Source: Schaalia odontolytica (GTDB lineage Bacteria > Actinomycetota > Actinomycetes > Actinomycetales > Actinomycetaceae). Taken from it: a DNA stretch of 64,000 nucleotides. A program made the translations under genes and the position numbers. Location of the stretch: NCBI RefSeq assembly GCF_009730335.1, contig NZ_CP046315.1:310001-374000 (forward strand). The letters run 5' to 3'. The notes below the pieces were generated by a model. It saw nothing but the letters and a program-made list of their open reading frames with translations. It was not told the origin of the DNA and ran no database searches. Shown in pieces: positions 15,864-46,901 of this stretch. Position 1 is the first letter of the stretch. Every line of letters starts with the position of its first letter.

Positions 15864-15968
15864 TCGCATGCAATTCGATTGGGAGAAGTTTCAATAAAGT
15901 CTGAAAACGTTGCAATTCCAATGATCTCAATTCAAGGTTTGAAATAGTGTCGGGGGAATTGCATGCGA
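15864..15968 (+). repeat. 105-bp element with 13-bp inverted termini, copy A
   Basis: Starts TCGCATGCAATTC and ends with its perfect reverse complement GAATTGCATGCGA. An internal AACGTTGCAAT block is shared with copies near 22.1 and 46.8 kb. No coding capacity. It may be a MITE-like non-autonomous element or a structured-RNA repeat. Confidence 0.7.
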
Positions 15969-16043
15969 AATTGCGTGTGGGTTCAGGAATGAGGGGCGTG
16001 AGGGCCGGGTGTTAGGGCTGGGGGCGAGCGACGGGGTCCCAGT

Positions 16044-16177
16044 AGGGGCCTGGCTGCGGTGCCCGTGGGCGGTGGCGGGGCCTGGCCGGGCTTCGAGACG
16101 ACGCGCCGAGCGAAGCTCGCGGCGCGGACGGCGAGCGGGCGGGCCGCCGCCCACGGGCACACCAAGCAGCCAGGCCT
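16044..16177. repeat. Long imperfect inverted repeat (about 30-bp arms)
   Basis: Left arm 16044-16072 (AGGGGCCTGGCTGC, then GGTGCCCGTGGGCGG) pairs with right arm 16144-16177 with only small bulges. The spacer carries its own apical hairpin CGAGC-GAA-GCTCG. A stable RNA or cruciform of about 134 nt is possible. The remainder of the non-coding stretch 15286-16379 holds the two motif arrays, element A and the direct repeat before the DUF4956 gene. Confidence 0.6.
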
Positions 16178-16317
16178 GACACAGCACGCGGCGCCCAGGC
16201 AAGCAATCGAGAACACAGCAAGCAAAACCCCAGAAACACAACGAAAAGTGCCCGCTCAAACACTGGCATTCACAGCTTCACAGCAACATGCCGAAAAGTC
16301 ATATGGGAAATATGAGA

Positions 16318-16339
16318 GCTTCATAGGTTCTTCATAGGG
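16318..16339 (+). promoter_or_regulatory. 11-bp direct repeat, PHO-box-like
   Basis: GCTTCATAGGT followed immediately by TCTTCATAGGG, 11-bp periodicity, about 40 nt before the start of the DUF4956-VTC operon. Tandem 11-bp direct repeats are bound by OmpR/PhoB-type regulators such as PhoP in actinobacteria. A weaker GCTTCACAG lies 44 bp upstream. Confidence 0.45.
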
Positions 16340-16379
16340 TCGAGTGGGGAAATTGGTGCATCGACAAAAGGAGACACCA

Positions 16380-16922
16380 ATGACCGCCCTGATTCTGATC
16401 GCCATTGACCTGGTTGCCATGGCCGCTCTCGTGTTCGGCCTGTACTTCCCACGGCACCGCCGCGCTGACCTGGTCGCAGCTTTCCTCGGTGTGAATGTCG
16501 GCGTCCTCGCCGTCACGATCATCCTCGCGAACTCGACAGTGAGTGCGGGCCTCGGCCTCGGCCTCTTCGGTGTTCTCTCGATTATCCGACTGAGGTCCGA
16601 CCAGATCTCGCAGACGGAAATCGCCTACTACTTCGCCTCGCTGGCCCTCGGCCTGCTGACGGGCATGTCCTCGGCGGTGACCCCGCTGCTGGGAGGACTG
16701 ATCGCCCTGATCCTTGTGGCCCTGGCCTTCGGTGACTCGAAGCTGATCTTCGGCCGCTACACCTCGCAGACCGTCCAGCTGGACCGCGCGATCGCCGACC
16801 CGGCCGAACTCAAGGCGGCCCTCGAGCAGCGCCTCGGCGCGTCCGTCGCCTCGGTCAGCGTCGTCAAGCTCGACCTCGTGAACGACCTGACTCTCGTGGA
16901 TGTGCGCTCGAAGGTCGCCTGA
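16380..16922 (+). CDS. DUF4956 membrane protein
   Basis: 180 residues with four hydrophobic helices in the first ~120 residues and a small soluble C-terminal alpha/beta domain, the layout of DUF4956 proteins. The conserved LFGVLSIIRLRSDQISQTEIAYYF is its hallmark region (residues ~55-80). AAAAGGAG is 6 nt before the ATG at 16380, favouring this over a longer in-frame extension. DUF4956 genes commonly sit beside VTC-domain polyphosphate polymerases, as here (67 bp upstream of one). Role unknown; probably a membrane partner of the polymerase. Confidence 0.85.
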   Translation: MTALILIAIDLVAMAALVFGLYFPRHRRADLVAAFLGVNVGVLAVTIILANSTVSAGLGLGLFGVLSIIRLRSDQISQTEIAYYFASLALGLLTGMSSAVTPLLGGLIALILVALAFGDSKLIFGRYTSQTVQLDRAIADPAELKAALEQRLGASVASVSVVKLDLVNDLTLVDVRSKVA

Positions 16923-16988
16923 CACGCCAGCCCACCCGCCGCCCGCCAGCGAACACCCCACAGACCGCCACTACCAAGGACACGACTC

Positions 16989-17810
16989 ATGAACGCCACC
17001 CTGAACTCGATTCTCGCCGACCTCGACTCGATCGGCCTCGATGAACTGAATAAGCGCGCGGCGATGCTGACCCGAGTGGACCGCAAGTACGCGCTGGACG
17101 CCGCCACGGCCTCGGCGATTCTGAGCCGCCTCCCCGAGGACGTGTTGGTCCTGAACATCGACGGCCAGGTGTCCCAGGGCTACGCCTCCACCTACTACGA
17201 CACCCCCGACATGGATTCGTACTTGCTGACCGCGCTCAAGCGTCGCCGTCGCTTCAAGGTCCGCACCCGCTCTTACCTCTCGTCCAAGGCCTCGTTCCTG
17301 GAGGTCAAGACCCGCGGCCCGCGCGGCGTGACCGTCAAGAAGCGTATGCCGATCTCTTGGGACGAGGCCGGGGCTCCTCTCGCGGGTGAGCGCCGCCAGT
17401 GGGTGACCGGCAAGGTTGAGAAGACGGGATACGGCCATCTGGTGCCCGCCCTTGAGCCGGTCCTGGCTGGGTCCTACGAGCGCAACACCCTGCTCCTGCC
17501 CGGTGGCGTGGGACGCGCGACGGTGGACACGAACCTGTTGTGGCGCTCGCTGCGCACGGACGGCACCGAGGTTGCTCGCCCCGACCTGGTCATTATCGAA
17601 ACGAAGTCGGGTGCGACCCCATCCGTGGTGGACCACCTCCTGTGGGAGGGCGGCGTGCGACCCGTGAAGATCTCCAAGTACGGGACCGCGATGGCCGCCA
17701 TGCACCGCCTGCCCGCGAACAAGTGGCACCGCACGCTGGACCGTTACTTTCACGAATACGTGGAGGTCCCCGAGCTCGCGCACGACGCGCCCCTCGCGAT
17801 GGCGGCCTGA
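16989..17810 (+). CDS. VTC-domain polyphosphate polymerase-like protein
   Basis: 273 residues. VTC domains form a tunnel-shaped fold that in yeast Vtc4 makes polyphosphate from ATP. Visible family features are TRVDRKYAL (residues ~19-27, basic tunnel entrance), YASTYYDTPDM, KRRRRFKVRTRSYL and FLEVKTRGPRGVTVKKRM, which supply the conserved Arg/Lys residues lining the tunnel, and a late LVIIETKS glutamate (metal ligand) segment. It lies between DUF4956 and a secreted beta-helical lipoprotein, an arrangement also met around CotH-type spore/surface protein kinases. Enzyme activity in bacteria of this subgroup is inferred from the fold. Confidence 0.85.
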   Translation: MNATLNSILADLDSIGLDELNKRAAMLTRVDRKYALDAATASAILSRLPEDVLVLNIDGQVSQGYASTYYDTPDMDSYLLTALKRRRRFKVRTRSYLSSKASFLEVKTRGPRGVTVKKRMPISWDEAGAPLAGERRQWVTGKVEKTGYGHLVPALEPVLAGSYERNTLLLPGGVGRATVDTNLLWRSLRTDGTEVARPDLVIIETKSGATPSVVDHLLWEGGVRPVKISKYGTAMAAMHRLPANKWHRTLDRYFHEYVEVPELAHDAPLAMAA

Positions 17811-17907
17811 CAGACCTAACACCGGCGCCCGCAGTTTCGACAGCACATGAAACGAAAGCGCTGAGCATAAGAAACACAAGCTTTAACTGCACGAAAGAGA
17901 CAGACAT

Positions 17908-19818
17908 ATGAAAGCCCTTCAGAAAATTTGGACCCCCGCCCGGACGATCGGCGCGATCGCCCTCGTTGGAACGCTGGCGCTGGGTGCGTGCAGCGCATCG
18001 GGAACGGCCTCCTCGTCCTCCGCGACGACCACCGCCACCGCAGCCGTCGCCGCCTCCGGAACCAACGGCGACACGACCGCGCCGCCCACCGCGGCCGACG
18101 CCCTGGCCTCGAACGCGAAGGCCTCCCACGTGAAGGACAGTGACTGGAAGGCCTCGGACGCCGTCGACGTGACGCTCAGCGGCGCGACCGCGACCTCCTC
18201 GTCCGACGCCGTGTCCGTCAGCGACGGCGTGCTGACCATCTCCAAGGCTGGCGTCTACAAGCTCAGCGGCTCCTTCACCGGAAAGGTCGTCGTGGCCGCA
18301 GGGTCCGAGGACCAGGTCGTCCTGATTCTCGACAATGCGACCATCACCTCCTCCACGGGCACCGCGATCGAAGCGACCAGCGGTGACGACCTCGTCCTGT
18401 CTCTCGAGGGCACCTCGACGATCACCGACGGCACCTACACCGGCACGGAGGACGCGAACGCGGCCATCTACGCCGACATGGACCTCACCGTCACCGGCTC
18501 GGGCACGCTCAACGTGACCTCCGGCGCCTCGGACGCGATCACCTCCAAGGATGACCTCTACGTCCTGAGCGGCACGATCAACGCGACCGCCTCGGATGAC
18601 GGCCTGCGCGGCAAGGACTCCCTGACGATTGCGGGCGGCACCGTCACTGTGAACTCCGGCGGCGACGCCCTCAAGTCCGACCAGGACAACGACGACACCA
18701 AGGGCTACGTGTCCATCGTGGACGGCACCGTCACCCTGACCTCGGGAGGCGACGGCATCGACGCGTACACCGACGCGATCGTCACCGGCGGCACCCTGTC
18801 GATCACCTCGGGCGGCGGCGCCTCGGCCGGCAAGCCCTCCACGGGCTCGACCAAGGGCATCAAGGCTCAGACCTACATCATCGTCGACGGCGGCACGACC
18901 ACCATCGACGCGGGGGATGACGCCATCCACTCCAACGGCGCGCTGCGCTTGAGCTCGGGCACGATCACCGCCGCCTCCGGCGACGATGGCGTGCACACCG
19001 AGGTCGCGGCCGTCCTGGACGGCGCAACCGTGACCGTCACGCAGTCGAACGAGGCCCTCGAGGGCGGCCTCATCACGATCTCCGACGGCACCGTCGACCT
19101 GACCTCGAGCGATGACGGCATCAACGCCTCGGGTTCGATCACTGTCGAGGCCGGCCTGGCCGCCGTCGCCGAGTCCAGCTCCGATACGACCACCACCACG
19201 ACCACCACCCAGCAGATGGGCCCCGGTGGCATGGCTGACGGCGGCGGCTCGATGGAGGACACCGGCGAGCAGCTGAACATCACCGGAGGCACCGTGACCG
19301 TCAACGCGAACGGCGACGGCCTCGACTCCAACGGCTCGCTGACCATCAGCGGCGGCACGACGACCGTCTACGGCCCGGCGTCCGGCGCGAACGGCGCCCT
19401 GGATTCCAACGGCGCCATGAGCATCACGGGCGGCACGGTCATCGCCTTCGCCACGAACGAGATGGTGGAGACGCCGACCACGACCGACGGCCAGGGCTGG
19501 ATCTCCGCTGCGGCTTCCGGCTCCGCAGGGGCGACCGTGACGATCACGGACTCCTCCGGCTCCGTCCTGGGTACCTACACCTCGCCCAAGGCCTTCGGAA
19601 ACGTCATCTACTCGACCTCCGGCATGACCAACGGCTCCACCTACACGGTGAGCGTCGACGGCACATCCACTGAGGCGACCGCCGGCCAGGGCGGCGGAAT
19701 GGGCGGCCCCATGGGCCCCGGTGGCCCGGGTCAGGGTGGCCAGCCCCCGGCGGGTGGCCAGCCCCCGGCGGGCGGTCCGGGTCAGGGCGGTCAGCCCCCG
19801 GCCGCACCCCAGGGCTGA
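17908..19818 (+). CDS. Secreted carbohydrate-binding-domain lipoprotein (DUF4353-like)
   Basis: 636 residues. A basic N terminus, a hydrophobic segment and the lipobox LGAC (Cys28) mark a lipoprotein. A Ser/Thr/Ala linker leads to a long repetitive right-handed beta-helix-like region with many ITGGTVTV and SSGTITAASGDDGVH-type strands rich in Asp and Gly, typical of the carbohydrate-binding DUF4353 family. The last ~45 residues are Gly/Pro/Gln-rich, built from GGQPPAGG units. It is the third gene of the DUF4956-VTC unit and ends at a strong terminator. The repeated DDG/DGDGLDSN loops look calcium-binding; that is inference. Confidence 0.82.
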   Translation: MKALQKIWTPARTIGAIALVGTLALGACSASGTASSSSATTTATAAVAASGTNGDTTAPPTAADALASNAKASHVKDSDWKASDAVDVTLSGATATSSSDAVSVSDGVLTISKAGVYKLSGSFTGKVVVAAGSEDQVVLILDNATITSSTGTAIEATSGDDLVLSLEGTSTITDGTYTGTEDANAAIYADMDLTVTGSGTLNVTSGASDAITSKDDLYVLSGTINATASDDGLRGKDSLTIAGGTVTVNSGGDALKSDQDNDDTKGYVSIVDGTVTLTSGGDGIDAYTDAIVTGGTLSITSGGGASAGKPSTGSTKGIKAQTYIIVDGGTTTIDAGDDAIHSNGALRLSSGTITAASGDDGVHTEVAAVLDGATVTVTQSNEALEGGLITISDGTVDLTSSDDGINASGSITVEAGLAAVAESSSDTTTTTTTTQQMGPGGMADGGGSMEDTGEQLNITGGTVTVNANGDGLDSNGSLTISGGTTTVYGPASGANGALDSNGAMSITGGTVIAFATNEMVETPTTTDGQGWISAAASGSAGATVTITDSSGSVLGTYTSPKAFGNVIYSTSGMTNGSTYTVSVDGTSTEATAGQGGGMGGPMGPGGPGQGGQPPAGGQPPAGGPGQGGQPPAAPQG

Positions 19819-19830
19819 GGCTTCCCAGTA

Positions 19831-19866
19831 GTGCGCCCCGCGTGATTGTCGACACGTGGGGCGCAC
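19831..19866 (+). terminator. Terminator hairpin after the lipoprotein gene
   Basis: 14-bp stem GTGCGCCCCGCGTG (19831-19844) with CACGTGGGGCGCAC (19853-19866), one G-U pair, 8-nt loop, 12 bp after the stop codon. Confidence 0.8.
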
Positions 19867-20012
19867 GCATGCCTGCATCGCGTCTTTTTCGCCGAGGCCT
19901 CGGCCGGTATCTCACGCCCGCACCCTCGCTCGCCACCCCCGGGATCAGCGCAACTAAACTGGACCCAAAGGACGAGGCCCCGGCCTCGTCGATGACAATG
20001 AAAGGACCCCTC

Positions 20013-20468
20013 ATGCTCCCCTCCGAAAAGCTCGCCGAGCTCGGCCTCGAACTGCCCGCCGTCGCCACGCCCGTCGCCGCGTACGTGCCCGCCGTCATCG
20101 ACCGTGGCGTCGTGCGCACCTCCGGCCAGATCCCCGTCGTGAACGGCGAGCCCGTGTGCATCGGCGCGGTCGGCGAGGACGGCGCGGACCCCGAGGACGC
20201 CAAGGACGCGGCGCGCGTGTGCGCCCTCAACGCCCTGGCCGCAGCCGCCTCCGTTGCGGGCGGCATCGACAACCTCGCGGGCGTCGTGAAGGTCGTGGGC
20301 TTCGTGTCCTCGCGCCCCGACTTCTACGGGCAGGCCGGCGTCATCAACGGCGCCTCGGAGCTGTTCGGTGAGATCTTCGGCAGCCAGCACGCGCGCAGCG
20401 CCGTGGGCGTCGCCGCGCTGCCCCTCAACGTCAGCGTCGAGGTCGAGGCCGAGTTCCTCATTAAGTGA
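20013..20468 (+). CDS. RidA/YjgF-family protein
   Basis: 151 residues of the RidA-like branch that deaminates or binds reactive imines/enamines formed by PLP enzymes. VVRTSGQIPVVNG, AAASVAGGIDNLAGVVKVVGFVSS and the C-terminal PLNVSVEVEAEF are family segments. It belongs to the longer YjgF_endoribonc-like subgroup, not the short archetype, and the canonical C-terminal Arg-Cys-Glu triad is not obvious, so catalysis is not assured. Start 20013 follows AAAGGA at 7 nt; an in-frame extension further upstream has no signal. Confidence 0.85.
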   Translation: MLPSEKLAELGLELPAVATPVAAYVPAVIDRGVVRTSGQIPVVNGEPVCIGAVGEDGADPEDAKDAARVCALNALAAAASVAGGIDNLAGVVKVVGFVSSRPDFYGQAGVINGASELFGEIFGSQHARSAVGVAALPLNVSVEVEAEFLIK

Positions 20469-20550
20469 ACGCGCGGACGCGGCTGAGGCATGCCTACACT
20501 GGGTAAGGTTCGCTGAAATGGCCCGTCGGGCCGAAGGATAAGGAAAAGAC

Positions 20551-21189
20551 ATGACTGACCGTCAGATGTTCAAGCTGGTCGACGCCAACACCGTCCCCTC
20601 CGAGGGCGGCGGCTGTGGTTGCGGCTGCGGTGGCGAGGGTAAGAAGGCGCGCGCCGAGCAGGCTCCCGAGCAGGCGCCCGCCGAGCACGCCGGCTGCGGC
20701 TGCGGCGGCCATGAGGCCGCTGAGCAGGCCCCCGCCGAGCACGCCGGTTGCGGCTGCGGCGGACACGACGCTCCCGCCGAGGCTGCTGAGGCCCCCGCCG
20801 AGCAGGGCGGCTGCGGCTGCGGTGGCCACGACGCTCCCGCCGAGCGTCCCCACGAGATGGCCGCCGAGCCCATCGAATCCACGGCCGGTGGCTGCGGCTG
20901 CGGCGACGGCGCCCCCTCGGCGGGCAACGTCCACGCTGGCGGCGCCGGCGTCATCCACCGCCCCGGCGCGGACGAGCTGGTCATCCACTCGATCCCCCGC
21001 GTTGTGCGCCACGCGGTCCTCTTCGCGGCGGTCGATAACCTGCCCGTCGGCGAGAACATCCAGATCTGCGCGCCCCACCAGCCCGAGCCGCTGTTCGCGC
21101 ACCTGCAGGACTCCGAGCAGCACTACCGCGTGGAGACCCTCGAGGTCGGCCCCGTGGATTGGCGCTACCGCATCACGCGTCTCGCCTGA
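20551..21189 (+). CDS. DUF2249 protein with N-terminal CGCGGH repeat array
   Basis: 212 residues. The C-terminal ~75 residues (IPRVVRHAVLFAAVDNL...) match DUF2249, an uncharacterised domain found with hemerythrin and nitric-oxide-related proteins. The N-terminal ~120 residues hold five Cys-rich blocks: GGCGCGCGG, AGCGCGGHEA, AGCGCGGHDA, GGCGCGGHDA and GGCGCGDGA, separated by Ala/Pro/Glu linkers. The Cys-Gly-Cys-Gly-Gly-His units look like metal or Fe-S/copper ligands. RBS AAGGATAAGG is just before the ATG. A TACACT -10-like box lies about 55 nt upstream. The DNA of the linker repeats is near-identical, so the array can expand by slippage. Confidence 0.78.
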   Translation: MTDRQMFKLVDANTVPSEGGGCGCGCGGEGKKARAEQAPEQAPAEHAGCGCGGHEAAEQAPAEHAGCGCGGHDAPAEAAEAPAEQGGCGCGGHDAPAERPHEMAAEPIESTAGGCGCGDGAPSAGNVHAGGAGVIHRPGADELVIHSIPRVVRHAVLFAAVDNLPVGENIQICAPHQPEPLFAHLQDSEQHYRVETLEVGPVDWRYRITRLA

Positions 21190-21426
21190 GGCTCTTTGAC
21201 ACGACGAGGCCGTGGCCGACTCTCGCTTTCCCGCGTGGCTGGCCACGGCCGCGTCGTATGCGCACGAAGACGTGGCCTTCCAATGCCTCGCGCATCTGTG
21301 CGCCGACGTGCTCGCACGGGCGCCTATTCCCATGACTGGTCCGGTGCCTGACGACGTGCGGAGATGGGCGCGCGTTGGGGTGTCCATTCGCGTGCCTGGG
21401 AGCGTCCGACCCGGTACCGTTGGTGT

Positions 21427-21906
21427 ATGAGCTTCTTTGACATGACTTCTGACGCCGACGTTGAGGACGACCTGGATCGCGTTGAGACCGACGTGGTCGT
21501 GGACTGCGACATTGAGGCCGCGTGGGCGCTCGTGTCGGAGCCGGGCTGGTGGGTCAACGATGGCCCGCTGGGTGACCACGAGGTGACGCTCGGGGATGAC
21601 GGAATTTATCGCGTGAGCGACCCGGACGCCGGCGACTGGCTGATCGAAAAGGCCGACGAGGATCCGACGGACGTCGTCGCCTTCCGCTGGTACCCGCTGG
21701 CCGACGACGAGCTGCCGGACGAGTATGCGACCCGCATCGAAATCTCCCTGTCCGAGGAGCGTGGCGGCGTCGCCATCCACGTGGAGGAGTCGGGTCTGGC
21801 GTCGGTCTCCGACGACGAGGCCGAGGCCCGCCAGGCGTACGAAGACGAGGTCGGCATGTGGGAGCAGGTCCTGAGTGCCGCGAAGAACTACCTCGAGGGC
21901 CGCTGA
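21427..21906 (+). CDS. SRPBCC/AHSA1-like protein
   Basis: 159 residues. VVDCDIEAAWALVSEPGWWVND and the C-terminal long helix resemble START/AHSA1 lipid-binding folds (activator of Hsp90 ATPase 1-like). Very acidic (many Asp/Glu). The ATG at 21427 lacks a Shine-Dalgarno; TACCGT ends 6 nt before it, so translation is probably leaderless. Function not known. Confidence 0.75.
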   Translation: MSFFDMTSDADVEDDLDRVETDVVVDCDIEAAWALVSEPGWWVNDGPLGDHEVTLGDDGIYRVSDPDAGDWLIEKADEDPTDVVAFRWYPLADDELPDEYATRIEISLSEERGGVAIHVEESGLASVSDDEAEARQAYEDEVGMWEQVLSAAKNYLEGR

Positions 21907-22010
21907 GTCTCTGAGTTTCTGCGCCGGCATCTGGGGATGCCGGTGGTGTTCCGCTGTCGTGGCATTTCGCGGGCGAATGACGCGTAGTGAGCGCGTTGCC
22001 CGACTTTGCA

Positions 22011-22036
22011 CCCCCGCAGCCTCACGGCTGCGGGGG
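22011..22036 (+). terminator. Terminator hairpin
   Basis: CCCCCGCAGCC-TCAC-GGCTGCGGGGG, perfect 11-bp stem, followed by CTGTTTGTT. It ends the SRPBCC transcription unit. Confidence 0.88.
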
Positions 22037-22102
22037 CTGTTTGTTAGCGGTGTGGTTCATGGATCGTGAGCTGAGTGTCCGTCCGTGTGTGTCCCCGAAA
22101 TT

Positions 22103-22209
22103 TCGCATGCAATTCCCGTGCGGATACTTCAAAAGTTTAAGTCAGAACGTTGAAATCCTGCGGTTTTCAGCGTGTTGTTGTGTGTGGCCGTCAGGGAATT
22201 ACGTGCGGA
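22103..22209 (+). repeat. About 107-bp element with inverted termini, copy B
   Basis: Begins TCGCATGCAATTCCC and ends GGGAATTACGTGCGGA; extended by two bases the arms pair at 14 of 17 positions, the differences being C/T changes. It shares the AAGTCAGAACGTTG block with copies A and C. No coding capacity. Confidence 0.65.
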
Positions 22210-22329
22210 ATTGGTGAATGTGGGAACAGTGGCGGGGCATAGGCTGCGGGCTGCCGGGCGCTCGCCGAGGTTGTGCTTGTGGGCGTGGGCGCTGCACCCG
22301 ATCCGTAGGCAGTGCACCCGTTCTGATCG

Positions 22330-22540
22330 GGTGTAGCGTCCCGTAAGAGGTGTAGCGTCCCGTAAGAGGTGCAGTGCCGGGTGTAGGAGTTGTCGGGCGA
22401 ACCATGGTGGAGCTTGTGACTCCGAAGCGTTGCGCCATTTTGGGGAGCAATGCACTAGATGGGGGGCATTGCACTGGATAGTAGCTAGTGCAATGCCCTG
22501 CTAAGTAGTGCAATGCTGGCGAAAATAGTGCAATGCCTCC
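22330..22540. repeat. Non-coding short-repeat cluster
   Basis: Two perfect tandem units of 19 bp, GGTGTAGCGTCCCGTAAGA (22330-22348 and 22349-22367), are followed by GTGCAATGC-type motifs: GCATTGCAC at 22467 and three TAGTGCAATGC at 22486, 22506 and 22526, with a one-base variant at 22447. With element B and a terminator this accounts for most of the gene-free stretch 21907-22572. Confidence 0.65.
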
Positions 22541-22572
22541 CGGTGCACGCCTCCTGCGCTGTGAGCTGCGCT

Positions 22573-23070
22573 CTACCGTTCCGAGGCCTCTCGTTCTGTT
22601 GCCACATGATCAGTGGCCTCACGTTCAGCCGCCTCACGCTCCGCCTCGCGGGCTGCCTTCTTGGCGCGGGCGTGCGCTTCGACCTCTTCGGGGGTGAGGG
22701 GTCCCTGCGTCGAACCTTCGCTGCCGTCGGTGCGCTCCCACGAAATAGCGAGGCTGTCGCGTGCGCCGAAGCGCGCCAGGTGGATGCCGACGATGAATTC
22801 GAGGCGATCGGCGCGCTCGGGCTCCGTGCGCAGCTCAAGCCTCAGATCAGAAGCCGACGCGATCACGTCAAAGCGCCCCAGAACCGGACCCTCGCGGTCG
22901 AACAGCAGGTATCCGCTGCCCGCCTCCTCGTCCCAGGAACCCGTGATCTTGTGGCCCATGTGGCTCACGAGCTGCTTGCCGTAGCGCGCAGCCCGCTCGG
23001 TGGGAACCGTGGCCACGGAGATCAGGGGGTACGAGGTCTCGCCCGTCGAACGCGTCGAATTCTGTGTCAT
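22573..23070 (-). CDS. DUF2218 domain protein
   Basis: 165 residues. The first ~100 match DUF2218 (ARYGKQLVSHMGHKI, LLFDREGPVLGRFDV), a small alpha/beta protein often linked to siderophore or iron-uptake loci. The last ~50 are a charged Ala/Arg/Glu helix (KKAAREAEREAAEREA), likely coiled coil. Reverse-strand box TAGGTT ends exactly 6 nt before the ATG, so it is probably leaderless. Function unknown. Confidence 0.8.
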   Translation of the reverse strand: MTQNSTRSTGETSYPLISVATVPTERAARYGKQLVSHMGHKITGSWDEEAGSGYLLFDREGPVLGRFDVIASASDLRLELRTEPERADRLEFIVGIHLARFGARDSLAISWERTDGSEGSTQGPLTPEEVEAHARAKKAAREAEREAAEREATDHVATEREASER

Positions 23071-23230
23071 AAGGCAAACCTAACTTGAATGCGCTTGCTC
23101 TGCCATGCGTAGCTCTGGATTCGGTTATGAGCGTACCTGTGCGGTAGCGTTGGATAGTCAAGCGCGTCACGCGAGCGCGCAAAGGCCTCGCAAAAAGTCC
23201 CCGGGCAGGGAGCAGGCGGAAGGAACAACG

Positions 23231-24700: not shown

Positions 24701-24730
24701 CGCAATGAATACCAAGTGACTATGCTCACC

Positions 24731-24820
24731 AGAGTGCCACGGGAGCTCGAACCGAGCTGAGAGGGGACCACCCCCGACCGTAGAACCTGATCCGGATCAT
24801 ACCGGCGTAGGAAGGCTCTT
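24731..24820 (+). promoter_or_regulatory. TPP riboswitch (THI element)
   Basis: Conserved blocks GCTGAGAGG (24756-24764) and GAACCTGATCCGGATCATAC followed by CGGCGTAGGAA (24783-24813) are the TPP-binding core. The P1 strands AGAGTGCC (24731-24738) and GGCTCT (24814-24819) close it. It precedes the thiamine-precursor ECF transporter genes, so these are shut off when thiamine pyrophosphate is abundant. Confidence 0.95.
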
Positions 24821-24850
24821 CCCTCGTGGCCGCTGTGCAACACGAAGGGA
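24820..24850 (+). promoter_or_regulatory. Hairpin masking the ykoE ribosome-binding site
   Basis: TCCCTCGTG (24820-24828) pairs with CACGAAGGGA (24841-24850), one bulged A; the right arm contains the Shine-Dalgarno GAAGGGAG of ykoE. It starts where the riboswitch P1 helix ends, so it may be the expression platform for translational control. Confidence 0.6.
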
Positions 24851-38605: not shown

Positions 38606-38637
38606 GCTCCCCGTCTCTCATTCTGTCAAGACCCTGA

Positions 38638-38761: not shown

Positions 38762-38836
38762 GGCAGTGACGGCCGACACGACGAGATTCTCGCCGTGCTC
38801 GAACACGGCCGTCCGTCGACACATTGGAGTAGGCAT

Positions 38837-41800
38837 ATGACAACGAAGAAACCAGCGACGCTCCTCGCGCTGGCTGGCACCGCCGCGCTCGTGGTTGCCG
38901 GCCCCGCGGCCCTCGCATCCCCGCCAACCCCGGCGGATACCCGACCCGACGCGGGCGCCACGGCCTCGTCCCTGCCCGTTGGTGACGTGGATACCGCGCT
39001 CACCTCGAAGAGCGGGGAGACCACCCAGACTGAGCAGGCCCCGACGACCGACGAGGTTGACCCCGCCGCAGTCGTCACGATCGTCGTCCAGCTCGACGAC
39101 GGCGTAGACCGCACGGCCTCCCTCGCCTCGATCAACGAGGCCGTGGCCGGCGCATTCCCCGGCTCCTCCACCCAGGTGGAGCGCGAGTACGACAAGGCCC
39201 TGCAGGGCTTCGCGCTGAGCGCCCCCGCCGGATCCCTCGACGCGATCCGCGCGGTGAACGGCGTCAAGGCCGCCTTCCTCGATCGCGACACCCACGTCGA
39301 TGGCGTCGACGATCAGGTCGCCGGAGAGGGTGCGACGAACTCCTCGCGCATCGCCACCCAGGACCCCGCCAACCTCAGCGCGCAGCTGATGATTCACGCT
39401 GACCAGATCACCCAGAAGGGCGACGGCAAGGTCGTTGCCGTCATCGACACGGGCGTGGATATGACGCACCCCGCGTTCGCGGGTGCCCTGCACGGGACTC
39501 CCGGGCTTTCCGAGGACAAGGTTGAGGCCCTGACCCCCCAGCTGGGTGACGGCAAGACCGGCAGCTACGTGTCAGAAAAGTTCCCCTTCGCCTACGACTA
39601 CGCGGATAACGACCCGGACGCCTCGCCGACCGGCGAAGCCGGATCGCACGGCACGCACGTCGCCGGCATCACCGCGGGCAACGCGGGCGAAATCGTGGGC
39701 ATCGCCCCCGACGCGCAGATCATCGTCGCCAAGGTCGCCCGCAGCAGCAACGGCGGCATCCCGGACTCGGCACTGCTCGCCGCTCTCGACGACATGGTCA
39801 TCCTGCACCCCGACGTCGTGAACCTATCCCTCGGACAGACCGGAGGCATGGATAACGAGGCCGACTCCATGTACGCGACCGTCTTCAAGAGCCTCCAGGA
39901 CGCCGGCGTCACCGTGAACGCGGCCGCCGGCAACGAGTACACCGCCGGATACGGCAACCTGTCCGGCAAGAACCTGCCCTTCGCCTCCGACCCTGACTCC
40001 TCGGTTCTGTGCGAACCGGCGTCCTACTCCTCGGTCGTGTCCGTGGCCTCGGTCGACAACTCGCTGGCGCACAGCGCCTTCACCGTCGGCGACCGCGACA
40101 TCGCCTACCAGCGCGCCGGTGGCGCCGACGGCCAGAAGATGCCTGACCTGTCCGACCTGACCGGAGGTCCCTTCGAGTACGTCGACGGCGGCATCGGTTC
40201 ACCCGAGGACGGCGAGGCTTTGAAGGCCAAGTACCCCGAGGGCCTCGCGGGCAAGATCGTGCTGGTCAAGCGCGGTTCTCTTACCTTCCAGGACAAGTTC
40301 AACAACATCGCCGGCTCCAAGCCCGCCGGCTTTATCGTCTACAACAACGTGCCCGGTGACTCGCTCGTGGTCATGAGCCTGGCGACGGACGGCGTTCCCG
40401 CCGCCTTCATCTCGCAGGCTGACGGCGAGGCCATGCTGGCCGCCGCCGACCACCACCTGAGCGTCGCCCCCGGCAAGGTCGTGCCCCCGAGCTCGAAGTA
40501 CTCCATGTCGAGCTTCTCCTCGTGGGGCGTCACTCCGGACCTGCGCCTCAAGCCCGAGGTTAGCGCCCCCGGTGGCAACATCTACTCGGCCGTGCCCGGC
40601 GGCACCTACGAGTTCATGTCCGGCACCTCGATGGCGACCCCGCAGATGGCGGGCGTGAGCGCCGTCGTCCTGCAGCGCGTCCAGAACGATCCGCTGTTCG
40701 CGTCCATGAGCGCGCGCGAGAAGGTTGACGTCGTCCAGAACCTCATCATGAGCACGGCGGCCCCCATCGTCGACCCGCTCCAGGACACCGGTGCCCCGTA
40801 TTCCCCGCGCAAGCAGGGCTCGGGCCTGGCGAACGTCCTGGCGGCCACGACCTCGTCCGTGTACCCGATCGTCGTCGGAGCCCCCGAGCAGTCCCGACCC
40901 AAGGCGGACCTGGGGGACGGCACGAAGGGCTGGCACTTCGACGTCACGCTGCACAACCTGTCCGGCGCCGAGGCCACCTACGAGCTGAGCTCGCAGGCGC
41001 TGTCGGAGATCGTTGAGGGCGGGTTCTTCACCGGCCACTCCGCCGATTGGCGAGGCAAGGGCGTGGACATCGCCTACTCCGGCGCGGCCGTGAGCGGCAC
41101 CGATGAGGGCGCGATCATCACCGTTCCCGCGAACGGCGAGGCGACCGTGGGCGTGGACGTCAAGCCCGGCGCCGACTTCGATGCCTCCGTCGCACAGAAC
41201 ACACCCAACGGCACCTTCCTCGACGGCTTCGTGCGCTTCACCTCGAAGACCGCGTCCCAGCCCGACCTGACGGTGCCCTACCTGGGCTTCTACGGAAACT
41301 GGGGCAAGGCCCCCATCTTCGACGCCCTCGCCTCCGAAGGCGGTGCCCACACGCTCGCCTCCTGGGTCTACAACGGCACGACGGGCCAGCAACTGGGATA
41401 CAACCCCCTGGTCAAGGACGCTGATCGTATCGGACTGCCCACCTCGAGCAAGAACGTCATCTCTCGCTCGGATGCCTCGGGTGCTCCCACGGTTCTCCAG
41501 CCCCGCACGGGCACGCTGCGCAGCGTCCACACCCTCAACGCCGCGTACACGAACGCCGCCGGAGAGACAGTCGCGACCTTCACGCGATTCATGAACTGGA
41601 AGTCCGCGCTCGATTCCTCCACCGGCAAGATGACGTGGGTCGAGCAGGGGCACGATCCGATGTCCCTGGACGCGCGCGCAGACGCGTACAAGAACCTGCC
41701 CGACGGCGCCTACAAGCTGACGCTGTCCGCGCACAACGACGGCCCCTCGCAGGCCGATCAGTCGATCTCCTACGAGTTCCGCCTCGACACCGCCGCGCCC

Positions 41801-42661
41801 GTCGTCTCCAACCTGGAGTACAAGGGCGAGGGTGCCGACACGGTCCTGTCCTTCGACATCACGGACGCGTCGCTGCTAGCCGCGATCGACCTGCACGACC
41901 CGGCCGACGGCCTGTGGTTCTACCGCCACATCTTCACCGATAACGAGGCCACCACCGCCGCGGACGGCACGCGCGCCTACCACGTTGAAATCCCCTTCAA
42001 GGACATCGCCCAGGCGTGGACCGACCAGGGTGGCTCTGGTGAGGTCATCGCTCACCCGTACCTGTTGGCCTGGGACTACGGCCTCAACCACTCCGAGGCC
42101 CTGACCCTGAACCTGCCCAGCGACAACACCGGCACCGCCGACGCGTGCGCGAGCACCGAGGGCGGCCACTGGACGAAGGACGCGGCCGGCTGGTTCTACA
42201 CCTGCGCCGACGGTACGAGCTACCTCAAGGGCGGCTGGTACACGATCAACGGCTCGGACTACCTGTTCGGCCCGTCGGGCTACATGGCGACCGGCTTCCT
42301 CAAGCGCGCCGATGGCCAGTGGGTCTACGCGAACGAGTCCGGCGCCCTCGTGGGTGGCTGGGTGCGTGACGGCGGCTCCTGGTACTACCTCGACCCCACC
42401 ACAAAGGTCATGGCCACCGGTTGGGTCGCCGACGGCGGCTCGTGGTACTACCTCACGTCTTCCGGTGCTATGGCCATCGGCTGGGTCAACGACGGTGGCT
42501 CCTGGTACTACCTGTCCGGCTCGGGCGCGATGGCGACGGGCTGGATCAAGGTTGGCGGCCTCTGGTATTACCTGGGACCCGATGGTGCAATGCTCACCGG
42601 CACCCAGGTCATCAACGGACGCACCTACGTCTTTGACGGTAGCGGCGTATGGGTTGGGTGA
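38837..42661 (+). CDS. S8 subtilisin-like cell-surface protease 2
   Basis: 1,274 residues, same architecture as protease 1. Triad Asp204, His271, Ser598. GGAG precedes ATG 38837 by 7 nt. Complete propeptide, PA insert, Fn3-like region and C-terminal repeat block ending in QVINGRTYVFDGSGVWVG. Stretches such as 41262-41345 and 41505-41560 are almost identical at DNA level, including silent sites, to protease 3, while other parts differ, consistent with gene conversion. Own promoter and terminator, so each paralogue can be expressed separately. Confidence 0.9.
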   Translation: MTTKKPATLLALAGTAALVVAGPAALASPPTPADTRPDAGATASSLPVGDVDTALTSKSGETTQTEQAPTTDEVDPAAVVTIVVQLDDGVDRTASLASINEAVAGAFPGSSTQVEREYDKALQGFALSAPAGSLDAIRAVNGVKAAFLDRDTHVDGVDDQVAGEGATNSSRIATQDPANLSAQLMIHADQITQKGDGKVVAVIDTGVDMTHPAFAGALHGTPGLSEDKVEALTPQLGDGKTGSYVSEKFPFAYDYADNDPDASPTGEAGSHGTHVAGITAGNAGEIVGIAPDAQIIVAKVARSSNGGIPDSALLAALDDMVILHPDVVNLSLGQTGGMDNEADSMYATVFKSLQDAGVTVNAAAGNEYTAGYGNLSGKNLPFASDPDSSVLCEPASYSSVVSVASVDNSLAHSAFTVGDRDIAYQRAGGADGQKMPDLSDLTGGPFEYVDGGIGSPEDGEALKAKYPEGLAGKIVLVKRGSLTFQDKFNNIAGSKPAGFIVYNNVPGDSLVVMSLATDGVPAAFISQADGEAMLAAADHHLSVAPGKVVPPSSKYSMSSFSSWGVTPDLRLKPEVSAPGGNIYSAVPGGTYEFMSGTSMATPQMAGVSAVVLQRVQNDPLFASMSAREKVDVVQNLIMSTAAPIVDPLQDTGAPYSPRKQGSGLANVLAATTSSVYPIVVGAPEQSRPKADLGDGTKGWHFDVTLHNLSGAEATYELSSQALSEIVEGGFFTGHSADWRGKGVDIAYSGAAVSGTDEGAIITVPANGEATVGVDVKPGADFDASVAQNTPNGTFLDGFVRFTSKTASQPDLTVPYLGFYGNWGKAPIFDALASEGGAHTLASWVYNGTTGQQLGYNPLVKDADRIGLPTSSKNVISRSDASGAPTVLQPRTGTLRSVHTLNAAYTNAAGETVATFTRFMNWKSALDSSTGKMTWVEQGHDPMSLDARADAYKNLPDGAYKLTLSAHNDGPSQADQSISYEFRLDTAAPVVSNLEYKGEGADTVLSFDITDASLLAAIDLHDPADGLWFYRHIFTDNEATTAADGTRAYHVEIPFKDIAQAWTDQGGSGEVIAHPYLLAWDYGLNHSEALTLNLPSDNTGTADACASTEGGHWTKDAAGWFYTCADGTSYLKGGWYTINGSDYLFGPSGYMATGFLKRADGQWVYANESGALVGGWVRDGGSWYYLDPTTKVMATGWVADGGSWYYLTSSGAMAIGWVNDGGSWYYLSGSGAMATGWIKVGGLWYYLGPDGAMLTGTQVINGRTYVFDGSGVWVG

Positions 42662-42693
42662 GATGAGGTGATCAGCACCTAACGGTGTTCATG

Positions 42694-42737
42694 TTCGGGT
42701 CCGGGAACCTTGCTGCGTAAGTGTTCCCGGACCCGAA
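42694..42737 (+). terminator. Terminator hairpin after protease 2
   Basis: TTCGGGTCCGGGAAC (42694-42708) with GTTCCCGGACCCGAA (42723-42737), perfect 15 bp. Confidence 0.85.
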
Positions 42738-42789
42738 ATCATGCTGACAGTAAAATAATGTCCAATCGTTTCCCAATGTGAAACAAAGT

Positions 42790-42817
42790 TTGTCACATGC
42801 GTCTTGTGCGGTATTTT
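42790..42817 (+). promoter_or_regulatory. Promoter of protease gene 3
   Basis: TTGTCA (42790-42795), 16 nt, TATTTT (42812-42817), 82 nt to the ATG; leader again ends in CGTCGACACATTGGAG. Confidence 0.75.
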
Positions 42818-42893
42818 GACAGTGACGGCCGGCACGGTGGAGTCCCCTCCTCCTGCCAACACAGTCACCCGTCGACACATTGGAGTTACCCAC

Positions 42894-45800
42894 ATGACAA
42901 TGAAGAAAACAACGGCGTTCCTCGCGTTCGCCGGCGCCTGCGCGCTGGCGGTGACAGGGCCCGCGACGCTCGCAGCGCCGCCAAGTCCCGCAGACGCGCA
43001 TCCCGCTACCGGAGCCACGGCCTCGTCCCTGCCGGTCGGTGACGTCGATACCGCGCTCACCTCAAAGAGCGGGCAGACCTCCCAGCCCGACCAGGTCACG
43101 CCGACCGCCGAGCAGGATGCTTCGGCGATCGTCGGGATCATCGTGCAGCTGCACGAAGGCTCGGACCGCGCGGCATCCCTCGCCTCGATCAACGAGGCCG
43201 TGGCCTCGGCATTCCCGGGCGAGAGCGCCCAGGTGCAGCGCGAGTACGACAAGGCCCTCGAAGGATTCGCGCTGAGCGCGCCCGCCGGCTCCCTCGACGC
43301 GATCCGCGCGGCGAGCGGCGTCAAGGGCGCATTCCTTGAGCGCGAAACGCGCGTCAGCGATGTCGACGAGGTCGATGCCGAGGGCGGTAGCCAGGCTCCC
43401 CGGCTCTCGACCCAGCATCCCGACAACCTCAGCGCCCAGATCATGATGCGTGCCGACCAGCTCACCCAAAAGGGTGAAGGCAAGGTCGTCGCCGTCATCG
43501 ACACCGGCGTCGAAATGACCCACCCCGCATTCTCTGGCGCAATGCCCTCGACGCCCGCGCTTACTGCGGACAAGGTGGGGGCCCTGACCCCGCAGTTGGG
43601 CGAAGGCAAGCAGGGCGTTTACGTCTCTGAGAAGTTCCCCTTCGCCTACGACTACGCGGACGGTGACAACGACGCGATGCCCGCCAAGGGATCGTACGGC
43701 TCCCACGGCACGCACGTCGCCGGCATCACCGCCGGTAACTCCGACCAGATCGTCGGAGTCGCCCCCGAGGCGCAGATCATCGTCGCGAAGGTCTCGCGCA
43801 GCTCGGACGGCGAGATTCCCGACTCGGCGCTGCTCGCCTCCCTCGACGACATGGTGGTCCTGCACCCCGACGTCGTGAACCTGTCCCTTGGACAGCTCGG
43901 CGGCATGGATAACGAGGCCGACTCGGTGTATGCCTCCGTATTCAAGAAACTCCAGGATGAGGGCGTCTCGGTCAACGCCGCGGCCGGCAACCACTACTCG
44001 GCCGGATACGGCAACACCTCCGGGCGCAACCTTCCGTACGCCTCCGACCCCGACTCCTCAACCCAGTGCGAGCCCGCGACCTACTCCTCGGTCCTCGCCG
44101 TGGCCTCGGTCGATAACCTCCTGTCCTACAACGCCTTTTCCGCCGCCGGAAAAGACATCGCCTACCAGCGTGCGCGCGGCGCGAACGGCGAGAAGGTCGC
44201 CGAAATCGCTGAGCTGGCCGCCGGATCCTACGAGTACGTCGACGCCGGATTCGCCACCGAGGAAGACGCCGCCGCCCTCACAGCCAAGTACCCCGGTGGC
44301 CTGGCGGGTAAGTTTGCCCTGGTCTCACGCGGCAAGCTGACCTTCCAGAAGAAGATCGAGAACCTGGCGGCGCTCAAGCCCGCCGGCATCCTCGTGTACA
44401 ACAACGTCGCCGGCGACTCACTCATGCTCATGAGCATCACGACCCTGGACGTGCCCGCCGCGTTCATTTCCCAGGAGAACGGTCAGGCCATGCTCGCGGC
44501 CGCAGATCGTCACCTGACCCTCGTGGATGGCAAGACCATCACCCCGAACTCGAACTATTCGATGTCGGACTTCTCCTCGTGGGGCGTCACCCCGGACCTG
44601 CGCCTCAAGCCCGAGGTCAGCGCCCCCGGCGGCAGCATCTACTCGGCTGTCCTGGACGGAAACTACGATCACCTCTCCGGCACGTCCATGGCGACCCCGC
44701 AGATGGCCGGTGTCAGCGCTGTGGTCCTGCAGCGTGTCCAATCTGACCCGTTGTTTGCGTCGATGAGTGCGCGCGAGAAGGTCGACGTCGTCCAGAACCT
44801 CATCATGGGTACGGCTCGCCCCATCGCGGACGCCGCCCAGGAGAACGGTGTCTTCTATTCGCCGCGTAAGCAGGGCTCGGGCATCGTTGACGCCCTGGCT
44901 GCCACGACCTCGTCGGTGTACCCGACCGTGGTCGGTGCTCCCGAGCAGTCCCGACCCAAGGCGGACCTGGGGGATGGGACCACCGGATGGCACTTCGATG
45001 TCACGCTCCACAACCTCGGCGCCGCACCCGCGACCTACGAGCTGAGCTCCCAGGCCCTGTCCGAGGACGTTGACGGTGGATACTTCACCGGCAGCTCCAC
45101 GGATTGGCGAGGCCGCGGGGTTGAGATTCGCTATTCCGGCGCTGCAACGGCTGCCGCCGAAGGCGCGACTGTTACCGTCCCGGCCGGTGGTCAGGCGACG
45201 ATCGGCGTGGACGTCACCCCCGGCGACCAGTTCGCCGCCTTTGCGACGGCTAATACGCCCAACGGCACCTTCCTTGACGGTTTCGTGCGCTTCGCTTCGA
45301 AGACAGAGTCCCAGCCCGACCTGACCGTGCCCTACCTGGGCTTCTACGGAAACTGGGGCAAGGCCCCCATCTTCGACGCCCTCGCCTCCGAAGGCGGTGC
45401 GCACACGCTACCCTCGGGTATCTATAACGGCGCGAGCGGGAACATCCTCGGCTACAACCCGTTCACCAAGACGAGCGACCTTACGGGTCTGCCCAAGGCT
45501 GACCGCTACGTGATCTCTCGGTCCGAGGCCTCGGGTGCTCCTACCGTCCTCGAACCGCGCACGGGCACGCTGCGCAGCGTCCACACCCTCAACGCCGCGT
45601 ACACGAACGCCGCAGGAGAGAAGGTTGCATCCTTCACGCGTTACCAGAACTGGAAGTCGGGTATCAGCCCGAGTACCGGCAGGATGACCTGGGTCGAAGA
45701 AGGCCACGAGCCGACGTCGCTCGACCTGCGTTCCGATGCATTCAAGGGCTTGCCGGACGGTGCCTACAAGCTGACGCTGTCGGCGCACAACGACGGTCCT

Positions 45801-46715
45801 TCGCAGGTGGAGCAGTCGATCTCTTACGATTTCCGTATCGATACGGTTGCGCCCGTTGTCTCCAACGTGACCTACACCGGGGAGGGCCAGGACATGGTCG
45901 TCTCCTTCGACGTCTCCGACTCCTCGCCGCTGGCTGGGATTGACGTGCATGACCCGGCCGATGGCCTGTGGTTCTACCGCTACGTTTTCTCAGACAGGGA
46001 GGGTAGCCTCGGGGCGGATGGGACCTACACGTACCACGTTGAGGTTCCCTTCAAGGATATTGATGCTGCGTGGGGTTACCAGGGTGGCTCGGGCAGCGTC
46101 ATTGCCCACCCGTACCTGTTGGCCTGGGACTACGGCCTCAACCACTCCGAGGCCGCGACCCTCGATCTGCCCAGCGATAACCCCGGCACGTCCGAGGCGT
46201 GCGCGAGCACCGAGGGCGGCAACTGGGTCAAGGACGGCGCCGGCTGGTGGTATGCCTGTGCAGGTGGCAAGGATTACCTCAAGGGCGGCTGGTTCACGAT
46301 CAACGGCTCGGATTACCTGTTCGGCCCGTCGGGCTACATGGCGACCGGTTTCCTGAAGCGGGTTGACGGCCAGTGGGTCTACGCGAATGAGTCCGGTGCC
46401 CTCGTGGGTGGCTGGGTGCGTGACGGCGGCTCCTGGTACTACCTTGACCCTGCGACCAAGGTGATGAAGACCGGCTGGGTTGCAGATGGTGGTTCCTGGT
46501 ACTACCTCACGGGTTCCGGTGCTATGGCGTCCGGCTGGGTCAACGACGGTGGCTCCTGGTACTACCTGAACGCTTCCGGAAAGATGGCCACCGGCTGGCT
46601 CAACGTGGGCGGCTCCTGGTACTACCTGTCTCCCTCCGGCGCCATGCTGACGGGCACACAGGTCATCAACGGACGCACCTACGTGTTCGACGCGAACGGA
46701 GTCTGGGTGCGCTAA
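42894..46715 (+). CDS. S8 subtilisin-like cell-surface protease 3
   Basis: 1,273 residues. Triad Asp203 (in VIDTGVEMTH), His271, Ser598. Same domain order as its neighbours. ATG 42894 follows the GGAG leader; an in-frame extension of 30 codons upstream runs into the promoter and is rejected. Divergence between paralogues is concentrated in the linker after the signal peptide, the surface loops of the catalytic/PA region and parts of the Fn3-like region, while the active-site strands and repeats are nearly constant, suggesting different substrate preferences on a fixed scaffold. Confidence 0.9.
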   Translation: MTMKKTTAFLAFAGACALAVTGPATLAAPPSPADAHPATGATASSLPVGDVDTALTSKSGQTSQPDQVTPTAEQDASAIVGIIVQLHEGSDRAASLASINEAVASAFPGESAQVQREYDKALEGFALSAPAGSLDAIRAASGVKGAFLERETRVSDVDEVDAEGGSQAPRLSTQHPDNLSAQIMMRADQLTQKGEGKVVAVIDTGVEMTHPAFSGAMPSTPALTADKVGALTPQLGEGKQGVYVSEKFPFAYDYADGDNDAMPAKGSYGSHGTHVAGITAGNSDQIVGVAPEAQIIVAKVSRSSDGEIPDSALLASLDDMVVLHPDVVNLSLGQLGGMDNEADSVYASVFKKLQDEGVSVNAAAGNHYSAGYGNTSGRNLPYASDPDSSTQCEPATYSSVLAVASVDNLLSYNAFSAAGKDIAYQRARGANGEKVAEIAELAAGSYEYVDAGFATEEDAAALTAKYPGGLAGKFALVSRGKLTFQKKIENLAALKPAGILVYNNVAGDSLMLMSITTLDVPAAFISQENGQAMLAAADRHLTLVDGKTITPNSNYSMSDFSSWGVTPDLRLKPEVSAPGGSIYSAVLDGNYDHLSGTSMATPQMAGVSAVVLQRVQSDPLFASMSAREKVDVVQNLIMGTARPIADAAQENGVFYSPRKQGSGIVDALAATTSSVYPTVVGAPEQSRPKADLGDGTTGWHFDVTLHNLGAAPATYELSSQALSEDVDGGYFTGSSTDWRGRGVEIRYSGAATAAAEGATVTVPAGGQATIGVDVTPGDQFAAFATANTPNGTFLDGFVRFASKTESQPDLTVPYLGFYGNWGKAPIFDALASEGGAHTLPSGIYNGASGNILGYNPFTKTSDLTGLPKADRYVISRSEASGAPTVLEPRTGTLRSVHTLNAAYTNAAGEKVASFTRYQNWKSGISPSTGRMTWVEEGHEPTSLDLRSDAFKGLPDGAYKLTLSAHNDGPSQVEQSISYDFRIDTVAPVVSNVTYTGEGQDMVVSFDVSDSSPLAGIDVHDPADGLWFYRYVFSDREGSLGADGTYTYHVEVPFKDIDAAWGYQGGSGSVIAHPYLLAWDYGLNHSEAATLDLPSDNPGTSEACASTEGGNWVKDGAGWWYACAGGKDYLKGGWFTINGSDYLFGPSGYMATGFLKRVDGQWVYANESGALVGGWVRDGGSWYYLDPATKVMKTGWVADGGSWYYLTGSGAMASGWVNDGGSWYYLNASGKMATGWLNVGGSWYYLSPSGAMLTGTQVINGRTYVFDANGVWVR

Positions 46716-46758
46716 TGCGCGTCTGCTCTGGATCACTGATTCGCTGATTCACGAGGCC

Positions 46759-46797
46759 GGGGCCCGGGAACGCTCACTGCGAGCGCTCCCGGGCCCC
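46759..46797 (+). terminator. Terminator hairpin after protease 3
   Basis: GGGGCCCGGGAACGCTC (46759-46775) with GAGCGCTCCCGGGCCCC (46781-46797), 16 of 17 pairs, 5-nt loop. Confidence 0.85.
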
Positions 46798-46798
46798 G

Positions 46799-46901
46799 TC
46801 GCATGCAATACCCTCAAGACCATCTTGTAAAGAGTATCTATCGTCGAAATTGCAACGTTTGCGGATGGTGATGAACAGCCGTGCAATCGAATTGCATACG
46901 A
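46799..46901 (-). repeat. 103-bp element with inverted termini, copy C (reverse orientation)
   Basis: Begins TCGCATGCAATAC, ends GAATTGCATACGA. Read on the minus strand it starts TCGTATGCAATTCGATTG and carries AAACGTTGCAATT at the same offset as copy A. It directly abuts the protease 3 terminator. With that terminator and a lone TATGTT -10 box (46968-46973) it fills the 306-bp gap before the next gene. Confidence 0.65.

What the first reader, a model, noticed from the sequence alone, without database searches (positions are those of the whole stretch)
15864..46901. Three-copy ~105-bp element with TCGCATGCAATTC inverted ends
Seen directly at 15864-15968, 22103-22209 (same strand) and 46799-46901 (opposite strand). 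Termini are inverted repeats of 13-17 bp, and AACGTTG(C/A)AAT occurs at a constant offset. Lengths are 103-107 bp, copies lie in gene gaps, and no ORF fits. Changes in the arms are mostly C/T, which would keep G-U pairing in RNA. It looks like a MITE or a conserved structured RNA repeat, and it does not match any family I recognise.
Basis: seen in the sequence. Interest (0 to 1): 0.75.

Follow-up and report, generated by a model that had tools for sequence, protein, structure and literature searches.

The report
Repeat element tied to a nuclease
A short repeated DNA element scattered between genes of oral Schaalia bacteria belongs to a wider family that pairs with a probable DNA-cutting enzyme encoded between two copies of the element, so it looks like an undescribed kind of small mobile DNA with its own enzyme.

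Summary
The three copies are real, and a profile of the family finds only these three in the window. The own genome holds 29.
The element behaves as DNA, not as a structured RNA. Its inverted ends come in two forms (CGCA-TGC-AATTC or CGCA-CGT-AATTC), and both ends of a copy agree in 136 of 143 copies. Length is nearly fixed within subtypes; rare short forms, and a related family, change length in steps near whole helical turns.
New finding: a partner gene, a DUF559/Vsr-like nuclease. Among 35 genus genomes its orthologs occur only in the six with most elements, with elements on both sides in five and on one side in the sixth. Its N-terminal part comes as two alleles that match the end type of the flanking elements and was exchanged relative to the rest of the protein.
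Distant homologs in the family are often flanked by their own, differently ended elements. The window's genome lacks the nuclease; its copies look like relics.
Best reading: a REP/RAYT-like pair built on a homing-type nuclease. The association is well supported; cutting and copying are inferred.

The parts
15864..15968 (+). Element copy 1 (105 bp, TGC ends, subtype A): TCGCATGCAATTC ... GAATTGCATGCGA
   Evidence: (113.8 bits); absent from the conspecific genome G005 within a larger indel
15906..15925 (+). Central core of copy 1 (AACGTTGCAATTCCAATGAT), about 42 bp from each end core
22103..22209 (-). Element copy 2 (107 bp), mixed ends: TGC at the low-coordinate end, CGT at the high-coordinate end
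   Evidence: (98.0 bits minus); ortholog in G005 91% identical
46799..46901 (-). Element copy 3 (103 bp, TGC ends with point changes), between a 1303-residue reading frame and a gene gap
   Evidence: (72.9 bits); identical copy at the orthologous place in G005

Best explanation
The element is the non-autonomous half of a two-part system. The other half is a roughly 311-residue protein with a C-terminal DUF559/Vsr-like (PD-(D/E)XK) nuclease domain, encoded between two copies of the element in relatives. Proposed mechanism: the N-terminal part (about residues 26-116) reads the end sequence CGCA-NNN-A(A/G)TT; protomers hold both ends of one element on the same face of the DNA across a loop that must be near a whole number of helical turns; the nuclease nicks or cuts at elements and repair copies another element into place, as in homing. 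This would spread elements, keep ends and length fixed and switch both ends together. In the window's lineage the nuclease is missing, probably lost, so the three copies are relics that persist and decay. Shown: dispersal, near-fixed length, two-state concordant ends, co-occurrence and flanking of the gene, allele matching, similar pairs elsewhere in the family. Inferred: binding, cutting, copying, loss.
For: Among 35 genus genomes, orthologs (81-100% identity) of the nuclease are in exactly the six with most element matches (G019, G020, G022, G001, G026, G023). Elements lie on both sides of the gene in five of six (one of these ten flanks is a 68-bp partial copy) and on one side in G023. Residues 26-116 form two alleles that match the end type of the flanking elements in 6 of 6, while residues 117-311 separate G020 and G001 from the other four, support 1.0; 19 of 21 allele-separating residues lie at 27-116. 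Genome-wide end counts follow the allele in 5 of 6 genomes. Distant homologs (34-49% identity and family level) are flanked by paired repeats in 12 of 26 loci against 15 of 387 control genes, with their own ends recurring through the genome. Length classes near whole turns. Both ends switch together between orthologous copies more often than independent change predicts. Weak matches of the nuclease domain to solved endonucleases and to a PADLOC homing endonuclease model at E 0.003.
Against: No binding, cutting or movement was seen. G023 carries the TGC allele but has 6 TGC to 15 CGT pairs. In G023 the 1,261 bp on one side of the gene hold no element. Two neighbouring gene families in the same cluster are also flanked on both sides (3 of 3 and 3 of 4), so flanking alone is weak. 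14 of 26 distant homologs showed no paired flanks at the threshold. Control genes come from Schaalia loci only. The structure prediction failed (pLDDT 38). Six genomes are few and related.
Confidence: 0.68

Rival explanations
1. Ordinary MITE family moved by an unseen transposase; the nuclease gene is a passenger that sits between two copies.
For: Size, inverted ends, intergenic places and copy number fit a MITE. Presence of the gene and number of elements could share ancestry among few related genomes.
Against: No target duplication stands out in 198 copies. No longer element with these ends was noticed among the loci read, where unpaired ends were 46 of 392 and many are partners that scored too low. 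A passenger does not explain the allele match or the paired flanks of homologs with other ends.
Confidence: 0.14
2. A host-functional binding array or terminator-like element kept by selection; the nuclease-type protein is a domesticated DNA-binding partner (regulator or nucleoid protein) rather than a mover.
For: The element is more alike than both 60-bp flanks in 48 of 78 orthologous pairs. Sites repeat about every 21 bp and length is nearly fixed. In gaps between genes of the same direction the element opposes the genes 58 to 17, though copies are not independent.
Against: 23 of 35 genus genomes have no match at E 1e-5, and G000 and G005 lack the protein but keep copies. Replacement in place and switched ends suggest exchange rather than plain conservation.
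Confidence: 0.13
3. A structured RNA repeat.
For: Five of six window copy-strands fold better than shuffles (z -2.2 to -4.4; the sixth -0.3), and some left-half hairpins of subtype B look compensated (read by eye).
Against: No excess of G-U over A-C; two-state ends; no Rfam family over the elements at the gathering score and only two matches of 15.8 bits near copy 1 below it.
Confidence: 0.05

Closest known systems
REP/REPIN repeats with RAYT transposases (PMC2817692: passages read, abstract included; PMC3116915: abstract and outline read)
   Same: Short dispersed extragenic elements with inverted ends; one gene flanked by two copies; enzyme and flanking repeats vary together; enzyme presence goes with repeat number.
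   Different: The RAYT enzyme is a Y1 tyrosine transposase (PF01797), which is found in 0 of 35 genus genomes. Here the partner is a DUF559/Vsr-like nuclease, the element has three cores at about 42-bp spacing and a near-fixed length.
Bacterial MITEs such as Correia and RUP elements (review PMC10969869: passages read; RUP and Correia sizes near 105 bp are recalled)
   Same: Size, inverted ends, intergenic location, clusters with other repeats.
   Different: No target duplication found, no parent transposon found, nearly fixed length with steps near whole turns, partner nuclease gene.
Vsr-like homing endonucleases (PDB 3r3p, named 'Mobile intron protein'; its identity as I-Bth0305I is recalled)
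   Same: Weak sequence match of the nuclease domain (3r3p E 0.51; 3hrl 'Endonuclease-Like Protein' E 2.9e-5); replacement of elements in place resembles homing.
   Different: The gene is not seen inside an intron or intein; most of the moving DNA would be a non-coding element.
Integron attC sites and cassettes (recalled)
   Same: Elements of about 60-140 bp with inverted parts; genes between same-strand elements in one cluster.
   Different: Ends do not match the recalled attC core; no integrase search was made.

Membership tests
REP/RAYT | Y1 tyrosine transposase (PF01797) in the genome | tested here: not met
   0 of 35 genus genomes; control rings in 5 of 14 named genomes
REP/RAYT | Enzyme gene flanked by two copies of the repeat | tested here: met
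   met with a different enzyme: both sides in five of six genomes, one side in the sixth
REP/RAYT | Enzyme and flanking repeats vary together | tested here: met
   N-terminal alleles match flanking end type in 6 of 6; genome-wide majority in 5 of 6
MITE of a DDE transposon | Target-site duplication | tested here: not met
   198 copies, 2560 offset and length combinations, best cell 5 against 0.3 expected, none standing out
MITE of a DDE transposon | Full-length parent element with the same ends and a transposase | tested here: inconclusive
   none noticed in the loci read; whole genomes were not scanned for transposases other than Y1
Structured RNA family | Base-pair covariation with G-U intermediates | tested here: not met
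   G-U against A-C 13:23 and 57:67; two-state coupling within an arm
Known Rfam family | Match at gathering score | tested here: not met
   only a TPP riboswitch at 24729-24830 in the window
PD-(D/E)XK / DUF559 nuclease (partner gene) | DUF559 match above Pfam cut-off | tested here: met
   4 of 4 proteins, 27.9-29.3 bits against 20.6; PF18741 REase below its cut-off
PD-(D/E)XK / DUF559 nuclease (partner gene) | Nuclease activity | not testable with these tools
   conserved acidic and His residues in the domain of 15 homologs; no assay
Homing endonuclease | Cuts a target site and is copied into it by repair | not testable with these tools
   only weak sequence matches and exchange in place

The most novel reading that the evidence does not exclude
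A previously undescribed class of mobile DNA spread through Actinomycetaceae: miniature elements copied from site to site by a Vsr/DUF559 homing-type nuclease, with end recognition set by an exchangeable N-terminal domain, and with element length held near whole helical turns because one enzyme assembly must grip both ends of so short a DNA.
Probability: 0.45. Interest if true: 0.92.

Novelty: new variant of a known kind. Interest (0 to 1): 0.84.

Why it matters
REP/RAYT is the known case of bacterial repeats kept by a dedicated enzyme. A second case with an unrelated enzyme would show that such pairs arose more than once, would give a role to a widespread protein of unknown function (DUF559), and would offer natural enzyme and site pairs in which recognition switched by domain exchange. 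It makes the question of how miniature elements spread without a visible transposase directly testable.

Tried and rejected
Rfam over the window gave only a TPP riboswitch; near copy 1 at a relaxed threshold, two matches of 15.8 bits. RNA reading rejected on pair counts. RAYT rejected: no Y1_Tnp in 35 genomes. Target duplications: none. Clean empty sites: sought between G000 and G005 and in a few cross-species cases read in full; each difference was larger than the element or lay among other repeats. At the nuclease locus G000 and G005 have ptp and ccdA 88 bp apart, but the gap sequence of G005 differs from the carriers' flanks, so no clean insertion point shows. Viral contigs: no two-ended element of the TGC/CGT pattern; 22 single-end matches were not examined. 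Bifidobacterium: ramosum and saguini carry elements of similar size with other ends, reuteri was only a pattern hit; the nuclease profile found nothing at E 1e-5 in two of the three genomes and two weak hits in ramosum, so that family is unexplained. Structure prediction from four sequences failed (pLDDT 38); no fold search was made. Weak PADLOC and NCBIfam matches name no family. Literature: 14 library papers hold 'DUF559' and, by titles and starts of abstracts only, none links it to repeats; nor did the listings. That library lacks most subscription papers, so this is no proof of absence.

Full report
What is there. The window holds three copies of a roughly 105-bp element. A covariance model from 18 own copies finds 29 distinct places in the own genome (2.43 Mb, one contig) and 28 in a conspecific genome, G005 (places counted by hand; the weakest has E 0.0015). 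Over 35 genus genomes 12 have matches at E 1e-5 or better and 23 have none. The window most likely comes from the Schaalia odontolytica group (inference).

Anatomy. Ends: AAATT-T-CGCA-(TGC or CGT)-AATTC, inverted at the other end, with an outer C-run or G-run. Centre: AAACGTTGCAATTCCAACG in subtype A, AAACCGCATGATTTCAACG and relatives in subtype B; TTCAA-type sites lie between, so sites repeat about every 21 bp. Length: 81 of 88 subtype A copies share one length and 69 of 87 subtype B copies are one base longer; 24 further copies were not assigned. Between the AATT cores of the two ends the distance is 85 (89 cases), 86 (75), 87 (6) or 84 (2); rare short forms have 63 (3) and 43 (1), about two and four turns less. 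The three 63-bp forms have another interior with the same ends. Of 143 copies from ten genomes 67 are TGC/TGC, 69 CGT/CGT, one CGC/CGC and six discordant. Most came from a scan pattern that left the first and third base of this triplet free; ten came from other searches, in part fixed to TGC.

DNA rather than RNA. In the predicted stems of the two subtypes G-U cells (13, 57) do not exceed A-C cells (23, 67). The two switching columns of one arm are coupled about as strongly as the two arms (z 15.6 against 16.6 in subtype A, 17.7 against 12.0 in subtype B). That points to two recognised sequences, not to free pairing. Window copies do fold better than shuffles in five of six strands, as inverted ends must.

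Turnover in place. Between genomes, 78 reciprocal orthologous pairs were found by flanking sequence. The element is more alike than both 60-bp flanks in 48, less alike than both in 4, between in 26. In the 56 pairs whose four ends are all TGC or CGT, 0, 1 or 2 ends are switched in 33, 9 and 14 pairs, against 25, 25 and 6 if ends changed independently. At some sites the flanks match and the element differs: XCEL against ORNL0103 has long flanks 95% identical (60-bp flanks 85% and 97%), element 81%, both ends switched. Gene conversion or replacement from other copies fits; it was not observed. Pairs share genomes and are not independent. Window copy 1 lies in a segment missing from G005, copy 2 is 91% identical there, copy 3 identical.

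The partner gene. Among 1194 predicted genes around elements one family is flanked by elements within 300 bp on both sides in 4 of 4 cases; two neighbouring families in the same cluster are so flanked in 3 of 4 and 3 of 3. It encodes about 311 residues with a DUF559 match above cut-off and no Pfam match before residue 183 at E 1. Over 35 genus genomes orthologs at 81-100% identity occur in six: G019, G023, G022, G026, G020, G001. These are the six with most element matches (78 to 106, against 49 or fewer elsewhere; both strands counted and capped, so lower bounds). Elements lie 7-66 bp from the gene on both sides in five; one of these flanks, in G001, is a 68-bp partial copy. In G023 one side has an element and the 1,261 bp on the other side have none. 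G000 and G005 have no ortholog; at the same place their ptp and ccdA genes lie 88 bp apart. A ccdA gene tree puts G000 and G005 beside G023, among the carriers (support 0.88), which suggests loss; one gene is thin evidence. Exact two-ended pairs are 9 of 29 places in G000 and 5 of 28 in G005, which fits decay.

Specificity. In a tree of residues 26-116, G019, G020 and G023 (flanking elements TGC) separate from G022, G026 and G001 (flanking elements CGT), support 0.93. In a tree of residues 117-311, G020 and G001 separate from the other four, support 1.0, as in the ccdA tree. 19 of 21 allele-separating residues lie at 27-116. Exact pair counts TGC:CGT are G019 46:6, G020 34:10, G001 16:22, G022 14:19, G026 8:21; the exception is G023, 6:15 with the TGC allele. 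TGC-allele against CGT-allele genomes: Fisher p 6e-11 without G023, 1.5e-7 with it, treating copies as independent, which they are not.

Generality. Homologs at 34-49% identity in other genus members have matching repeats up- and downstream in 4 of 9 loci, family-level homologs in 8 of 17 (threshold E 1e-8; the 17 are the loci beyond the genus among those returned for 66 of 213 genomes with hits). Ordinary genes of Schaalia loci give 18 of 390, or 15 of 387 without the nuclease itself; Fisher p 2e-9 for 12 of 26. The ends beside the G010 and G004 homologs recur 39 and 58 times in those genomes, 10 times in G014 and 0-4 times in the other 32, at up to 2 mismatches. In G004, 25 two-ended copies have spacings 83 (3), 92 (1), 93 (19) and 104 (2), counted; R is 0.98 at 10.5 bp, but most copies are in one class, so the steps rest on five copies. 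A genus g3 family ending GATGACAAAC occurs in 6 of 213 genomes; all six have a nuclease hit. In several copies its centre CCGCATGATTCCAACG differs by one base from a common Schaalia subtype B centre, and copies flank the gene on both sides in G063 and G074.

Mechanism. Shown: association, flanking, allele match, near-fixed and phased length, exchange in place. Inferred: the N-terminal part reads the ends, the nuclease cuts, repair copies. The domain has only weak matches to solved endonucleases (3hrl E 2.9e-5, 3r3p E 0.51).

Comparison. The pairing works like REP and RAYT (PMC2817692, passages read: rayt genes always flanked by two REPs, co-evolving with them), but the defining Y1 enzyme is absent, so it is not a member. 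It lacks the target duplication expected of a DDE MITE.

Noticed in passing
window about 15629-15790 and 16048-16176; G000 108150-108700: Long gene gaps hold several other repeat families with inverted ends, for example GCGCGAAAAAACTCGCCC...GGGCGAACTTTTTCGCGC and GGGCCTGGCTGCGGTGCCCGTGGGCGG...CCGCCCACGGGCAC.
   Followed up: no
window about 22300-22360 and 22640: Short GTGCA/CATTGCACTA-type repeats beside element copy 2.
   Followed up: no
window 24729-24830: TPP riboswitch, 67.8 bits.
   Followed up: no
L050, L105, L131 (Bifidobacterium ramosum and saguini): Elements of about 107-120 bp with ends CGCA-AGA-AATTC and inner inverted repeats; no clear partner nuclease by the Schaalia profile.
   Followed up: partly
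L156, L055, L046, L296-L299: In the nuclease cluster a 259-residue gene plus one element is present in some genomes and absent in others, as if genes between same-strand elements were lost or gained.
   Followed up: partly
L106 862-1331; G019 C1 475463, 475665, 475867: Tandem triplets of the element at about 179-bp and 202-bp spacing.
   Followed up: no
197 copies in fetched loci: Between genes of the same direction the element lies opposite to the genes 58 times and along them 17 times; copies are not independent.
   Followed up: no
L082 about 1357-1450, L099 about 7784-7877, L120 about 1295-1388: A third interior type, about 83 bp, with the same ends and CACAAGTGAC inside.
   Followed up: partly
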